Source: Deltaproteobacteria bacterium (GTDB taxonomy: Bacteria; Myxococcota_A; UBA9042; DTJE01). Taken from it: DNA of 55,405 nucleotides. The stretch lies in contig JAKPTZ010000039.1 in NCBI GenBank assembly GCA_029555025.1, forward strand, positions 1-55,405, read 5' to 3'. The notes beneath the pieces were generated by a model. That model saw nothing but the letters and a program-made list of their open reading frames with translations. It had not been told where the DNA came from and did no database searches. Made by a program: the position numbers and the translations under genes. How positions within the stretch are numbered: position 1 is the first letter of the stretch; each line of letters begins with the position of its first letter. Below, piece after piece: positions 26,650 through 32,376 of the stretch.

Positions 26650-29600
26650 TCAGAAATTACGACAAGTGGCGGTCATGTTTCGAAGGCTGGTCAAGGTCTT
26701 TCCCGTCTGATCCGCGGTCACAATATCCAGACAGCCGTCGGCATCGACATCGGCGACAAACATCTCGACAGGAAGTGTCCCGGTATCGAACATGAAGGGC
26801 TGGCTGAACCTTCGCTTACCCAGGTTGACGTATATCCAGACGGCTGACGAATCCTGATCCAGCACCACGATATCCATGTATCCGTCGCCGTTCATGTCGG
26901 CAACTTCGACATTGACCGGTATCTTTCCGGGGAAGGCCAGCGGCACCGGCGGTTCATATCCGACCAATTCGCCAAGCTGACCCAGCTTGCTCGCGCCAAG
27001 CGAATACAGGATGACTATTTTGTCGGAAAGCAGGGCAACGATATCCGAGAACTGATCCGTGCCGGCGGAGGGGGCCGCAGTTCCGTCAACAGGACTCTGC
27101 AGGTACCCGGGCGCGATGTCCACCGGGATTCCGCCAAGGGCGAAGTCGCGACTGCCTTCGTCCTTTCCGGTCAGGACGCTGAGACCCTTGTTCACGAAAA
27201 CGGTCAAGTCCCCGGTTCCGCCGTTTGCAACGATGACGTCGATCAGGCCGGGCGTCTTTTTCACATAGTTGTTCAAGGTCCGATGCATGGGGAATGAAAC
27301 GATGGCAACGGGGTTGCGCTCGTCTTCCATGTCCATGACCGGGATCGGCTCGTTGTTGATGGTCTTGGGCAGGAACGTCCCGTTAAGCTGGCCAAGCCTT
27401 GTCTGAAGAATCCACTTGCCGTCGTTTCCGGATTCCGGCTCGACACGGGACACATAGATGGCGTCGTTGACTTTGTAGGCATCGTCGCTGGCGTCGCGAT
27501 CGATGTCGCCGGTGGCCAGGATGGCAGGCTTGTCGCCAAACGGCAACTCGACGGGACTGACCGAAAGCGACAGGTGAGTTGCCTCGTGGAAAAGCAAGGC
27601 ATACGCAGTCGGATCATCGCCGTCCGTCGCCGTGTCGTCCGATGTGACGATCAAATCATCGGGCCGCTTGTATGAATCATCCAACGGAAGGTTCAGGCGC
27701 ACGTCGTAGTTTCCGACCACCAGCTTCTTCGGGGAGTTCAAATCGACCGTCGTGCTTCCGGCTGGACTGATTGGGAGGGCAATGACCGGGTCGGACGCAT
27801 ACACGCTTACCCTTGGTTTGCCGACCTGCGAAGGCATCAGAACGGCGGCATCGAGGAATGCGGCACCGGCGCCCTCGAGGGGCGACGTGAAGTGACCGAG
27901 CTGCATCGACAGAGGCGTGGCGTCAAGAATTGCCTGGTATGAACCAAGGAACCGGTTCCCAAGTTCGGACGACTGCCAGAGTATCGCGGTCAGCGCGTTT
28001 CCATCACGGTTGAGGAGAACCAGATCCAGGTGTCCCTCACCATCAAGATCCGCGAGCGTCACGTCGCGCGCGGCGCCGGCAAGCAGGGCGACCCCTTCCC
28101 GGAAGAACCTGGCGCCTTCCTTCTGGATGTTGCCGAAGAACACCTGAACCATGTTCGCGCCGGCGCAGAGAACCGCCACGTCGGGAACGTTGTTGCCGTC
28201 GATGTCGCCAACCGCGATGTCTTTCGGATCAAGACCGGTCATCCAGAAATCCCTTTTCTGGACTCGATAGGAATTTGTGTCCAGCGTTGCCGCGCCGATG
28301 GTCTCCTCGTCCGTGGTATCGGTGTAAATCAGGACATTCGGGTTCCCTGTGGCGGAAACGAAATTGACCGCGGCAAGAGACGTCACGCCCTTGACCAGTG
28401 CATACTGGGGATCAAGCGTGCTGTTTTCTCCGGTTGTCGCGATGCCCTGGCTGTTAACCGGGAAGATGGTGACCTGGGGATTGACCGGATTCCCGACGAC
28501 GACGGAGTTCCGGTTGTCGCTTGCGAACTGGCCGATCGCCACATACTCGGGACTGATTGCCCCGGAATAGACGCCGGCCTCGCCCCACGAATCAAGGTCG
28601 CCGAGTGGTGTTGCGGTCGAAAGGATTATCCCGGTCGAATAGGTGTCATCGGTCGTCGTGAATGCTATGTCACGGAAATCGTCACCGTTCAGCAGGCCCG
28701 TGGTCAGGTTGATTACATCATAGTCAATCGGGATCGACACCAGTTCCGAAAATGTCAGGTCTTCGTTCTGCCTTACGACCACGATCCTTCTGGTTTCAGC
28801 GGAACCGCAGAACGCGACCACGTCGTCGTAATCGTCCTGATCCATCATGGCGACCACGAATCGCGTGCAATTTTCCGCGGTGATGGCGGAGATGTTTTCC
28901 AGGACGGACGCACCGGATCGCCTGTAGAGAGAAATCCCGTCAAGTTCGGCAACGGCGACGCCCCAGATACCGTCGTCGGCGGGGCCGGTTCTGATTCCGG
29001 CAATCACGCTTCCGGAAGAACCTGTCGGAAGCGGAAGGTTTTCACCCCCGACGAATCCGGGAGTCTCGACGAACGTGACGGTCGAGGTCATTTCAGTCTT
29101 GTGGCCAGGAACGCCGTCGTCCGCAACTACCTTGACAATGACGTTGCCACCTTCCCAGCCAAGGGTCGGGATGACCAGGTCGGTGTGGGTCTCGACCCCT
29201 TCGACCGTGGTCGTGACACGCGTATCGACCACATCGGAAGTGGTTCCATCTTCTGGCGGCCAGTCCCATGTGAAATCGCCGGCGGTTATCTTGACGCTGT
29301 GAACCTTGTTGCCTTCATCCTGAACCTTGACCCTTACCACCAGGTCGCCCATGAAGTTCGAACCAGACTCGGGCATCGGTTCAAGGAAGGAAATCAACGG
29401 AAGCATGTTATCGACCAGAACCTTGCCCCTTGCGGATATGGTGCGCTGATCCGTCGCGACGGCGGTCACCTCGATGGATCTGTTGCCTTCCGGAACAAGG
29501 GTGGTATCCAGTTCGACAGAGTATGTTCCCGGCTTCGGGGCCTCGATTACTATCGGAACAAAACCAGGCTGCTTGACGAAACCGACCGACAGCGTGGCTG

Positions 29601-29853
29601 CAAGGCCCAGCGCGTCCTCGTACTTGAACTCGGCCTTGAACTTCCCGTTAATCAGCTTCCGGGATGCCGGATCAGGATTAATGAACGTGATTGACTGGGA
29701 CTTGTCAACGGGAGTGTCTTCAGGTCCGGAATCGTTTCCGGCGTCAAGGCCGGGATCACCGCTTCCGCCACAGCCGGCCATGCCCGACATCAGCACGACG
29801 GCAAGGACCGCTGACGAAAGAAAACCAACAGAAAGACGATGAATTCTGGTCAT
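26650..29853 (-). CDS. Large lipoprotein with Ig-like and FG-GAP/VCBS repeats
   Basis: A 1067-residue predicted surface lipoprotein. The signal peptide ends in lipobox MAGC (Cys near 28), followed by a Gly/Asp-rich linker (GGSGDPGLDAGNDSGPEDTP). Residues 50-265 look like two or three Ig-like beta domains. From about 280 to the end come beta-propeller-type FG-GAP/VCBS repeats with calcium-binding-like Asp motifs: VGDIDGNNVPD, LADLDGEGHLDL, TGDIDRDASDD, VADMNGDGYMDIV and VADVDADGCLDIV. Such proteins bind calcium and act in adhesion, surface display or carbohydrate recognition; no catalytic motif is seen. It lies downstream of the microcompartment-vertex operon on the same strand, but the 113-base gap contains its own weak promoter, so a functional link is not established. 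Confidence 0.9.
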   Translation of the reverse strand: MTRIHRLSVGFLSSAVLAVVLMSGMAGCGGSGDPGLDAGNDSGPEDTPVDKSQSITFINPDPASRKLINGKFKAEFKYEDALGLAATLSVGFVKQPGFVPIVIEAPKPGTYSVELDTTLVPEGNRSIEVTAVATDQRTISARGKVLVDNMLPLISFLEPMPESGSNFMGDLVVRVKVQDEGNKVHSVKITAGDFTWDWPPEDGTTSDVVDTRVTTTVEGVETHTDLVIPTLGWEGGNVIVKVVADDGVPGHKTEMTSTVTFVETPGFVGGENLPLPTGSSGSVIAGIRTGPADDGIWGVAVAELDGISLYRRSGASVLENISAITAENCTRFVVAMMDQDDYDDVVAFCGSAETRRIVVVRQNEDLTFSELVSIPIDYDVINLTTGLLNGDDFRDIAFTTTDDTYSTGIILSTATPLGDLDSWGEAGVYSGAISPEYVAIGQFASDNRNSVVVGNPVNPQVTIFPVNSQGIATTGENSTLDPQYALVKGVTSLAAVNFVSATGNPNVLIYTDTTDEETIGAATLDTNSYRVQKRDFWMTGLDPKDIAVGDIDGNNVPDVAVLCAGANMVQVFFGNIQKEGARFFREGVALLAGAARDVTLADLDGEGHLDLVLLNRDGNALTAILWQSSELGNRFLGSYQAILDATPLSMQLGHFTSPLEGAGAAFLDAAVLMPSQVGKPRVSVYASDPVIALPISPAGSTTVDLNSPKKLVVGNYDVRLNLPLDDSYKRPDDLIVTSDDTATDGDDPTAYALLFHEATHLSLSVSPVELPFGDKPAILATGDIDRDASDDAYKVNDAIYVSRVEPESGNDGKWILQTRLGQLNGTFLPKTINNEPIPVMDMEDERNPVAIVSFPMHRTLNNYVKKTPGLIDVIVANGGTGDLTVFVNKGLSVLTGKDEGSRDFALGGIPVDIAPGYLQSPVDGTAAPSAGTDQFSDIVALLSDKIVILYSLGASKLGQLGELVGYEPPVPLAFPGKIPVNVEVADMNGDGYMDIVVLDQDSSAVWIYVNLGKRRFSQPFMFDTGTLPVEMFVADVDADGCLDIVTADQTGKTLTSLRNMTATCRNF

Positions 29854-29966: not shown

Positions 29967-30248
29967 TCAGGTGGAGCTTCCATCGATTACCTGGACGACC
30001 GCCGCATCGACCAGAACGGAACGGGAGCCCGGCTCGATTGCATTCCTGGCCCCACTTCCAAAGGCAACCACGACCTCCTGCCCGACATCGGCATCAAGGT
30101 TGTCCATGGCAACTATCACGCGGCCGGTAAAATGGCGGGTTCCATCCATGTGAACAGAAAGCTGTGAAACCAGCAGCAGCTTGCGCCCCTGCAGGGCGGG
30201 ATTCTTGCGGGTGGCCCACACTTCGCCAATCACTACGCCGCGAATCAC
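29967..30248 (-). CDS. EutN/CcmL-type microcompartment vertex protein (BMC-P), copy 1
   Basis: A 93-residue protein expected to form the pentamer that caps vertices of a bacterial microcompartment shell. GTG 30248 is the start: its first bases overlap the stop of the preceding gene (GTGA), GGGGG lies upstream, and the family N-terminus begins exactly here (IRGVVIGEVWATRK). Other family signatures are GRKLLLVSQL, IVAMDNLDADVGQEVVV, FGSGARNA and VDAAVVQVID. It is the last of four overlapping or closely spaced genes. Its length is normal for the family. No hexamer (BMC-H) or trimer (BMC-T) shell gene is found anywhere in the window. Confidence 0.92.
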   Translation of the reverse strand: MIRGVVIGEVWATRKNPALQGRKLLLVSQLSVHMDGTRHFTGRVIVAMDNLDADVGQEVVVAFGSGARNAIEPGSRSVLVDAAVVQVIDGSST

Positions 30249-30568
30249 CGGGCACCCCCGCTTTGGCCCGAACCGTTCACCGGCCTTTGAAGACGACCTT
30301 CCCACATCTCGACATCATCGACGATTGCGGCGACCGATGCCTCGACGGGGAACCTGGTGTCGCCAAGGGCAAGCCTGGCCGGCGTCCCCATGCAGATCAC
30401 CACGTCCTGGCCGACCTCGGCCCCGACCGGATCAACGGCGACCACATGGTCGGTCTCATGGTCGGGCAGATGCCAGCAGAGCGGCTGAACCAGAAGAAGC
30501 TTCTGTCCTTCCAGTCGCCTGCATTTTCTCGTAGCCCAGACCTGTCCGACCACCCTTCCAAGAATCAT
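30245..30568 (-). CDS. EutN/CcmL-type microcompartment vertex protein (BMC-P), copy 2
   Basis: A 107-residue vertex-type shell protein from ATG 30568. The family pattern is clear: MILGRVVGQVWATRKC, GQKLLLVQPL, VVAVDPVGAEVGQDVVICMG, PARLALG and VEASVAAIVD. A Ser/Gly/Arg-rich tail of about 20 residues extends past the usual end. It begins 10 bases after the third paralogue and overlaps copy 1 by four bases. The three copies differ strongly from one another, so they probably form distinct or mixed pentamers rather than being a recent duplication. Confidence 0.92.
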   Translation of the reverse strand: MILGRVVGQVWATRKCRRLEGQKLLLVQPLCWHLPDHETDHVVAVDPVGAEVGQDVVICMGTPARLALGDTRFPVEASVAAIVDDVEMWEGRLQRPVNGSGQSGGAR

Positions 30569-30578
30569 CCGTCACCCT

Positions 30579-30890
30579 TCAGCAATCGACCGAAGCCTGG
30601 TCAACAATGGCAATGACCGTGTTTTTCGTGGTTACTCCGGGGCCGACAACAATGTCGCGTGGCCTGCTGCCAATCGAGACGACCACCAGTTGTCCGGCAT
30701 CCGCGCCCAGAGAATCGACGGCCAGCAAGGTCGATTCGGTCAGCATCGGCCCTTCAATGTCGGCGCCAAGACTTGTTCCGGGCTTGACGCCTTCAAGGGA
30801 GACGCGGCGGATTTCCACAACCCGGAAGGACACAAGTCCCTCCGACTGCTTCGAACCCCACACAGTCCCGATTACCTTGCCCAGTACCAT
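30579..30890 (-). CDS. EutN/CcmL-type microcompartment vertex protein (BMC-P), copy 3, divergent
   Basis: A 103-residue member and the most divergent of the trio. It keeps MVLGKVIGTVWGSKQ, LAVDSLGADAGQLVVVSIGS, RPRDIV and TVIAIVDQ, but has an insertion around residues 28-50 (RVSLEGVKPGTSLGADIEG) in the loop that faces the pore side in known pentamers. The ATG at 30890 shares its first base with the stop of the upstream SRPBCC-like gene (TGATG), so translation is coupled. The role is inferred from fold family only. Confidence 0.85.
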   Translation of the reverse strand: MVLGKVIGTVWGSKQSEGLVSFRVVEIRRVSLEGVKPGTSLGADIEGPMLTESTLLAVDSLGADAGQLVVVSIGSRPRDIVVGPGVTTKNTVIAIVDQASVDC

Positions 30891-31396
30891 CAGCCTTCCG
30901 CCTGAAGCCGCAGCCTCATCGCCGCGGCCTCGTCATCAAGCAGGCCGCGAGCCTTGTCGGCAATTATCACCTCGGCAACCATGCCGACAAGAAATACCTT
31001 TATCTTCAGCTCTCCGCTGACAATCCTGCGGGTTCTGCCACCGCCAAGATCGACGAATTCCATGGTTCCGGTGTTTTCCATTATGGCTGCGATTGACGGC
31101 GTGGTCGGAACGTTCCGGAATGTCGCCCGGCCGGATTCCACATCGACTTCGGCCTCCTCAATCCATTCCATCCACTTTGGATCCACCTTCCTGCCCGCGA
31201 TTTCATCGATGATCGGGACAAGCAGATATCTGACCCGCCTGAAGATCCTTCCGCCATCCTGCCGCCATTCGAGCGTCGATGCATCGGTCAGGGTCTTCAT
31301 GTCGGCCTTAAGCGACTCCGTCACCCCGTCCGCGAACATGGCCGCAACCAGCTTTTTCCTGTCACACTGAAAATCGTGTTCGTACCTGAACTTCAT
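30890..31396 (-). CDS. SRPBCC/DUF2505-like small-molecule-binding protein, first gene of the vertex-protein operon
   Basis: A 168-residue soluble protein without signal peptide or membrane segment. ATG 31396 is chosen because AGGAAG lies just ahead; the frame is open ten codons further. The beginning MKFRYEHDFQCDRKKLVAAM, the alternating beta strands RIFRRVRYLLVP, GTMEFVDLGGGRTRRIVSGEL and IKVFLVG, and a final amphipathic helix (IIADKARGLLDDEAAAMRLR) resemble helix-grip SRPBCC proteins of the DUF2505 type. Such folds bind hydrophobic ligands. Its close coupling to three vertex proteins is striking, because SRPBCC proteins are not a standard microcompartment component. The family assignment is moderately certain, the function unknown. 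Confidence 0.72.
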   Translation of the reverse strand: MKFRYEHDFQCDRKKLVAAMFADGVTESLKADMKTLTDASTLEWRQDGGRIFRRVRYLLVPIIDEIAGRKVDPKWMEWIEEAEVDVESGRATFRNVPTTPSIAAIMENTGTMEFVDLGGGRTRRIVSGELKIKVFLVGMVAEVIIADKARGLLDDEAAAMRLRLQAEG

Positions 31397-31476: not shown

Positions 31477-32376
31477 ATGGTCAGAATACAGAAATTCATC
31501 TCGGATGCCGGTGTCGCGGCCCGGCGAAAGGCGGAAGAACTCGTCGCCGAAGGCCGCGTGACAGTCAACGGCGAGACCGCAACCATCGGACAGATAATCG
31601 ACCCGTCGAAGGATCGGGTGATGGTCGATGGAACCGGAATCCGCAAGATGCCGAAGCGGATTTACCTGATGATGAACAAGCCGCGCGAGGTGCTCTGCAC
31701 CGCGGCAGACGCCAGGGGAAGAAGAACGGTCTTCGACCTTCTTCCCGAACTGCCCGCAAAGGTTCATTCGGTCGGACGTCTCGATTTCATGAGCGAAGGA
31801 CTGCTGCTTTTCACGAACGACGGCGACCTTACGCGCAAATTGACCCACCCGTCGGGGGGGCTTGAACGCGTATATGAAGTCAAACTTCAGGGGCCGGTGC
31901 GGGACTGGGTGCTGGGCAAGCTGGTTTCCGGCGTACAGCTCGATGACGGCTTCGCCAAGGCGGTCCGGGTGTCCCGGCTGCGCATGGCCCAGACGAACGA
32001 ATGGCTGTCGGTCACCCTTGCCGAAGGCCGTTACCGCGAAGTCAGGCGCATGATGGAAGCGGTCGGATACAACGTGCTGAAGCTGCGGCGCGTGCGATTC
32101 GGGCCGGTTGAACTTGGAGACCTGAAGATCGGCGGATTCCGATACCTGACGGATGAAGAGGTGATGGCGCTGCAGACCGGAAGGGCCACTCCGCTTCCAA
32201 AGCCGGGCACGGTCGTGAAGAAGCACGTGTCGGAACAGAAGAAGAAATCGCTCGGATGGGCGGTCTCCACAAAGGAACCTCGCCAGCCAAGGGGCCGCGG
32301 CAAGACGACGACCGCCGTCGCGCGCGCGCCGCGCCAGCCCCGCGCGACGCAAGCCCGCAAGACTCAGAAGGTATAA
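31477..32376 (+). CDS. Pseudouridine synthase, RsuA/RluB/E/F family
   Basis: Converts uridine to pseudouridine in rRNA. 299 residues: an S4 RNA-binding domain (about 2-60; RIQKFISDAGVAARRKAEEL), then the catalytic domain with GRLDFMSEGLLLFTNDG, where the Asp is the catalytic residue, and LAEGRYREVRRMMEAVGY. RluB-like 23S rRNA modification is the likeliest role, but RsuA cannot be excluded. A Lys/Arg/Pro/Ala-rich tail of about 60 residues after the fold probably helps RNA binding. Thirteen bases at the 3' end overlap the convergent Omp85 gene. AGGAT about ten bases before the ATG supports the start. Confidence 0.93.
   Translation: MVRIQKFISDAGVAARRKAEELVAEGRVTVNGETATIGQIIDPSKDRVMVDGTGIRKMPKRIYLMMNKPREVLCTAADARGRRTVFDLLPELPAKVHSVGRLDFMSEGLLLFTNDGDLTRKLTHPSGGLERVYEVKLQGPVRDWVLGKLVSGVQLDDGFAKAVRVSRLRMAQTNEWLSVTLAEGRYREVRRMMEAVGYNVLKLRRVRFGPVELGDLKIGGFRYLTDEEVMALQTGRATPLPKPGTVVKKHVSEQKKKSLGWAVSTKEPRQPRGRGKTTTAVARAPRQPRATQARKTQKV

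What the first reader, a model, noticed from the sequence alone, without database searches (positions are those of the whole stretch)
29967..31396. Orphan microcompartment-vertex operon: three divergent BMC-P proteins behind an SRPBCC-like protein
Four minus-strand genes are coupled by TGATG, a 10-base gap and GTGA overlaps. Three are EutN/CcmL pentamer paralogues, quite different from each other; the first is an SRPBCC/DUF2505-like protein. Known shell loci carry BMC-H genes and usually enzymes, but none is in this 55-kb window. Either these pentamers cap a shell encoded elsewhere (a satellite locus), or they act without a shell, with the SRPBCC protein as ligand-binding partner. The second option would be new.
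Basis: partly seen in the sequence, partly recalled or inferred. Interest (0 to 1): 0.78.

Follow-up and report, generated by a model that had tools for sequence, protein, structure and literature searches.

The report
Split satellite operon of microcompartment vertices
Three genes for the corner pieces of a protein-shelled bacterial organelle turn out to be part of an old, conserved set of four extra corner proteins, made by bacteria that also carry a complete shell elsewhere in the genome; why a shell would need so many kinds of corner is not known.

Summary
In detail: four coupled minus-strand genes, one SRPBCC/DUF2505 protein and three divergent EutN/CcmL (BMC-P) proteins. The "orphan" reading does not. 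The same genome has a full Haliangium-type (HO) microcompartment on other contigs (BMC-H, BMC-T, BMC-P, aldehyde dehydrogenase, a BMC-P pair with aldolase, an EutBC/EutL module), so the window is a satellite locus. It is not an ordinary one. In other Myxococcota families one operon carries four BMC-P genes (P1-P2-P3-P4), an ACT-domain protein with an encapsulation-peptide-like helix (X), and DUF711. In this family it has split: P1-P3 stayed here behind SRPBCC, and P4-X-DUF711 lies on contig C136. P1 to P4 each form one well-supported clade across seven families, outside the HO triplet. X tracks the extra vertices: 25 of 27 genomes with X have at least five BMC-P, against 1 of 352 without. SRPBCC adjacency is restricted to this order. 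Most likely P1-P4 are alternative vertices for the cell's one BMC-H shell, with X and DUF711 as associated cargo; this function is inferred. One genome (G364) has the quartet and no other BMC-P, so a quartet-only or shell-free role is not excluded. Verdict: new variant of a known kind.

The parts
30890..31396 (-). SRPBCC-fold protein, DUF2505 family (long ORF from 31426); first gene of the operon
   Evidence: Pfam PF10698 5.5e-07; AlphaFold2 pLDDT 88.6 matches SRPBCC/Bet v 1-fold proteins such as TTHA0849 (2d4r, 7.5e-09) and aromatase/cyclases; start set by relatives
30579..30890 (-). P1: most divergent BMC-P (EutN/CcmL) paralogue, long internal loop, 'VWG' signature
   Evidence: Pfam 4.4e-12; AlphaFold2 pLDDT 89.9 matches pentameric GrpN 4i7a and CcmL structures; own clade 100/98
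30245..30568 (-). P2: BMC-P paralogue with a C-terminal tail
   Evidence: Pfam 3.1e-24; closest solved chain is HO BMC-P 5v74, 1e-11; own clade 98/97
29967..30248 (-). P3: BMC-P paralogue, GTG start overlapping the stop of P2
   Evidence: Pfam 2.5e-18; own clade 100/96

Best explanation
The operon is one half of a split satellite locus of an HO-type metabolosome. The ancestral satellite operon was P1-P2-P3-P4-X-DUF711, where X joins an EutQ/EutT-like N-terminal segment, an encapsulation-peptide-like amphipathic helix and an ACT domain. In the common ancestor of this family and its sister the quartet came to lie behind a resident SRPBCC gene; in this family P4-X-DUF711 then moved elsewhere. Shown: the gene content, the split, the orthology of P1-P4, and the co-occurrence with BMC-H. 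Inferred: P1-P4 are alternative vertex pentamers (homo- or hetero-pentamers) inserted into shells built from the cell's single BMC-H, giving vertices with other surfaces or permeability, while X carries DUF711 to the lumen through its helix. SRPBCC is most likely a co-transcribed neighbour or accessory, not a shell part.
For: Full HO-type shell in the same genome with one single-domain BMC-H gene; main BMC-P matches HO BMC-P 5v74 at 3.5e-27. Intact P1-P2-P3-P4-X-DUF711 operon in families f2, f8, f9 and f47; split form in f1; quartet and X-DUF711 unlinked in f36 and f59. P1, P2, P3 and P4 each one clade with 98-100% bootstrap, outside the HO triplet. X and the count of BMC-P genes co-vary: 25 of 27 against 1 of 352. 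All 27 genomes with X have PF00936, and 24 have a single-domain BMC-H. The helix in X resembles the N-terminal peptides of this genome's own AldDH and EutC. AlphaFold2 keeps the BMC-P fold for the most divergent member. Published precedent: HO satellites with two BMC-P plus an aldolase, and HO EUT modules (PMC8217296).
Against: No experiment shows P1-P4 in any shell. G364 has only the quartet among BMC-P genes and no X hit. HO shells in family f6 do without the quartet. The encapsulation-peptide claim rests on sequence pattern, and my pattern was written after seeing the sequences. DUF711 has no known function that I could find, so the cargo role is a guess.
Confidence: 0.6

Rival explanations
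1. P1-P4 cap a second, separate compartment, distinct in composition or timing from the HO shell, which borrows the same BMC-H and carries X and DUF711 as its own cargo.
For: The quartet forms lineages outside the HO triplet and its operon has its own candidate cargo. G364 has the quartet without the HO triplet.
Against: The own genome has only one single-domain BMC-H gene, next to the HO AldDH; no BMC-H or BMC-T gene is linked to any quartet operon seen.
Confidence: 0.22
2. P1-P3 act without a shell, with the SRPBCC protein as ligand-binding partner.
For: SRPBCC-P1-P2-P3 is conserved in 12 genomes of the family and in the sister family; G364 has the quartet and no other BMC-P.
Against: SRPBCC is absent from the quartet neighbourhood in f8, f9, f36, f47, f55 and f59, occurs without any BMC-P in G014, and every X-bearing genome has PF00936.
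Confidence: 0.08
3. The extra BMC-P genes are redundant duplicates on the way to loss.
For: Only 12 pentamers are needed per shell, so seven paralogues look excessive (PMC8217296).
Against: Four lineages keep their order and identity across families of several classes; no stop codon is seen in any of the aligned copies.
Confidence: 0.04

Closest known systems
[quoted passage not shown] 2021, PMC8217296
   Same: BMC-P genes away from the main locus in Myxococcota with an HO shell; this genome has that very satellite too, on C157.
   Different: The window locus carries three further BMC-P lineages not orthologous to that pair or to the main BMC-P, no aldolase, and ancestrally X plus DUF711.
BMC-P triplet of metabolosomes (Sutter et al. 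2021)
   Same: Several divergent BMC-P paralogues in one organism.
   Different: The HO triplet (main, pair a, pair b) is present besides P1-P4, giving seven BMC-P genes.
Melioribacter roseus, seven BMC-P genes over five loci, four of them satellite or satellite-like (Axen et al. 2014, PMC4207490); FRAG BMCs (PMC8217296)
   Same: Same unusual total of seven BMC-P genes spread over satellites.
   Different: Another phylum; whether its genes are P1-P4 orthologues could not be tested here.
UPF0237 (ACT) and UPF0210 (DUF711) proteins, solved as 1zpv and 2ha9
   Same: X contains the ACT domain and DUF711 is full length.
   Different: X has about 125 extra N-terminal residues with an EutQ/EutT-like segment and an encapsulation-peptide-like helix, and the pair sits with BMC-P genes.

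Membership tests
Satellite BMC locus | Shell genes of one Pfam type only (PF03319 or PF00936), contiguous | tested here: met
   Three PF03319 genes and no PF00936 on the contig
Satellite BMC locus | A non-satellite BMC locus elsewhere in the genome | tested here: met
   C81 has BMC-H, BMC-P, BMC-T and AldDH
HO-type BMC (whole genome) | BMC-P related to Haliangium BMC-P | tested here: met
   Main BMC-P against 5v74, 3.5e-27; clusters with it in the tree
HO-type BMC (whole genome) | BMC-P pair with aldolase satellite and EUT module | tested here: met
   C157 pair plus class II aldolase; C153 EutB, EutC, EutL
HO-type BMC (whole genome) | AldDh falls in the HO branch of the AldDh tree | not tested
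   AldDH matches PRK15398 and has an N-terminal peptide; no AldDh tree was built
HO BMC-P triplet | P1-P3 orthologous to main, pair a or pair b | tested here: not met
   P1, P2 and P3 form separate clades
BMC-P pentamer (PF03319) | EutN/CcmL fold | tested here: met
BMC-P pentamer (PF03319) | Forms pentamers that cap vertices | not testable with these tools
   Single-chain prediction only
SRPBCC / DUF2505 | Helix-grip fold | tested here: met

The most novel reading that the evidence does not exclude
The quartet P1-P4 can work without the HO shell: in some Myxococcota (G364) it is the only BMC-P set, so it would either cap a shell of its own with four kinds of vertex or act as shell-free (hetero)pentamers.
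Probability: 0.15. Interest if true: 0.8.

Novelty: new variant of a known kind. Interest (0 to 1): 0.5.

Why it matters
Only twelve pentamers are needed to close a microcompartment shell, and the presence of several vertex paralogues is an open puzzle noted in the 2021 BMC catalogue (PMC8217296). A conserved set of four further vertex lineages, tied to one marker protein with an encapsulation-peptide-like helix and a protein family of unknown function (DUF711), gives a concrete system in which to test what extra vertices do, and a lead on the cargo of an HO-type organelle whose function is unknown.

Tried and rejected
Shell-free orphan reading: rejected as the main reading after the own-genome search. 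SRPBCC as an obligate partner: rejected, since linkage is order-specific and SRPBCC occurs without BMC-P. P1-P3 as the HO triplet: rejected by the tree. G143 and G217, which also have more than three BMC-P, turned out to be a second copy of the HO pair and a fragment. Searching papers for DUF711, pfam05167 or DUF2505 with microcompartments found nothing; papers on UPF0210/UPF0237 gave no function in titles or abstracts. Genome-contig search with SRPBCC returned only two relatives, already in the family set. Plasmid search with X gave only plain ACT proteins. Sampling 828 kb (about 16%) of G364 found no BMC-H, BMC-T, X, DUF711 or AldDH, which is too little to conclude absence. Promoter and terminator scans were uninformative.

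Full report
What is there. The window lies on contig C111 of a 3.49-Mb, 158-contig Myxococcota assembly (97.6% complete; the phylum name comes from the title of a 65%-identical relative). The four minus-strand genes are as described: SRPBCC/DUF2505 (30890-31396), P1 (30579-30890), P2 (30245-30568) and P3 (29967-30248). Joints are TGATG, a 10-base gap and one GTGA overlap. The three BMC-P proteins share 28-45% identity. A pseudouridine synthase (31477-32376) runs the other way upstream, and an FG-GAP lipoprotein gene (26650-29853) follows.

The genome is not shell-less. PF00936 and PF03319 searches of the own genome gave seven matches each. C81 holds a main locus: one single-domain BMC-H, a BMC-P whose best solved match is the Haliangium ochraceum BMC-P (5v74, 3.5e-27), a PduT-like BMC-T, a CcmP-like BMC-T and an aldehyde dehydrogenase of the PRK15398 subfamily with an encapsulation-peptide-like N-terminus. 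C157 holds two BMC-P and a class II aldolase; C116 an RnfC-like protein and a PduT-like BMC-T; C153 EutB, EutC and EutL. This matches the HO type with its two-BMC-P-plus-aldolase satellite and EUT module described by Sutter et al. 2021 (PMC8217296). The published definition of a satellite locus (PMC4207490) is met.

The triplet is part of a quartet. A seventh BMC-P (P4) lies on C136 with X and DUF711. In sister family f2 (G013) the order SRPBCC-P1-P2-P3-P4-X-DUF711 is one operon; in f9 (G020, G027, G030, G033), f8 (G026) and f47 (G198) P1-P2-P3-P4-X-DUF711 stands without SRPBCC; in f36 (four genomes) and f59 the quartet and the X-DUF711 pair are on different contigs. In this family (f1) SRPBCC-P1-P2-P3 and P4-X-DUF711 are separate. 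SRPBCC-P1-P2-P3 was seen in 12 of 13 f1 genomes, the thirteenth being cut by a contig end, and P4-X-DUF711 was read directly in five. The most economical account is one operon split in the f1 ancestor.

Four old lineages. A maximum-likelihood tree of 122 BMC-P sequences (95 columns) puts P1, P2, P3 and P4 each in one clade (100/98, 98/97, 100/96, 100/98) spanning families f1, f2, f8, f9, f36, f47 and f59, and all outside a group that holds the HO main BMC-P, the HO pair, CcmL and GrpN. The tree has few columns and its deep order is not to be trusted, but the four clades are well supported.

Co-occurrence. Over 379 genomes of the phylum X was found in 27; 25 of these have at least five PF03319 genes (mostly seven), against 1 of 352 without X (Fisher p about 1e-35; among the 155 genomes with any BMC-P, about 2e-25). 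Genomes are related, so the p-value overstates independence. All 27 have PF00936. Three of them (G001, G033, G332) lack a single-domain BMC-H and also the neighbouring main BMC-P, which fits a missing contig. G016 has X-DUF711 and only three BMC-P. HO genomes of family f6 have the three HO BMC-P and no X.

X and DUF711. X matches the ACT family PRK00194 over its C-terminal 90 residues and weakly EutQ and TIGR02536 at its N-terminus. Between them lies a segment such as DDRLRKVIAEEVVRALGSS, flanked by Pro/Gly/Ser-rich linkers, which looks like the peptides at the N-termini of this genome's AldDH (EEQKISSIVEQVMARLRDEG) and EutC (MDEKQIQDLVTAAVVEALAKQ). A pattern written after viewing them is found in 20 of 25 linkers, against about 2.6 expected from shuffles; this is suggestive only. 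DUF711 is full length (NF003700, 1e-197) and has one solved relative, UPF0210 protein SP0239 (2ha9); X has one, the ACT protein 1zpv.

SRPBCC. AlphaFold2 (pLDDT 88.6) and Foldseek confirm the SRPBCC fold; the best match, TTHA0849, and aromatase/cyclases say little about ligand. Relatives occur in unrelated neighbourhoods in f9 and in G014, which has no BMC-P. Adjacency to BMC-P is therefore a feature of f1 and f2 only, as far as sampled.

The exception that matters. G364 (f55, 91% complete) has exactly four BMC-P genes in one cluster, each best matched by the P1, P2, P3 or P4 profile in that order, and neither the HO triplet nor an X hit. This is the one observation that keeps a quartet-only or shell-free role open.

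Verdict. The finding is real and more interesting than an ordinary satellite, but not an orphan vertex system. Shown: the genes, the shell elsewhere, the quartet, the split, the clades, the co-occurrence. Inferred: alternative vertices in the single BMC-H shell, X as a targeting adaptor, DUF711 as cargo, SRPBCC as a neighbour. Axen et al. 2014 already noted seven BMC-P genes in Melioribacter roseus (PMC4207490), so the quartet may be known in number if not in kind; its orthology could not be tested.

Noticed in passing
L019:2442-3722 (+), G000 contig C153: EutL-type BMC-T fused to a cobalamin adenosyltransferase (EutT-like) domain in one 426-aa protein, downstream of EutB and EutC; the EutL-like matches in many family genomes sit in similarly long frames (about 430-480 aa), so the fusion may be conserved.
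   Followed up: partly
L015:17132-17821 (+), G000 contig C81: A second CcmP-like BMC-T paralogue (46% identical to the one in the main locus) about 7 kb away, which Pfam PF00936 misses but NCBIfam CcmP finds (below its cut-off).
   Followed up: partly
L185:4720-5979 (-), genome G364: A P1-P2-P3-P4 quartet that is the only BMC-P set in its genome, with no X or DUF711 beside it.
   Followed up: partly
L122, G014 contig C118: A genome with one BMC-H match and no BMC-P at all, but with the SRPBCC relative.
   Followed up: no
L186 and L187, genome G143: Two copies of the HO BMC-P pair in one genome, one in the main locus and one on another contig.
   Followed up: partly
L111-L114 (X loci of family f36): In f36, X carries what look like two encapsulation-peptide-like helices in tandem.
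   Followed up: no
window 26650-29853: FG-GAP repeat lipoprotein downstream of P3, at the same place in 7 other genomes of the family.
   Followed up: partly
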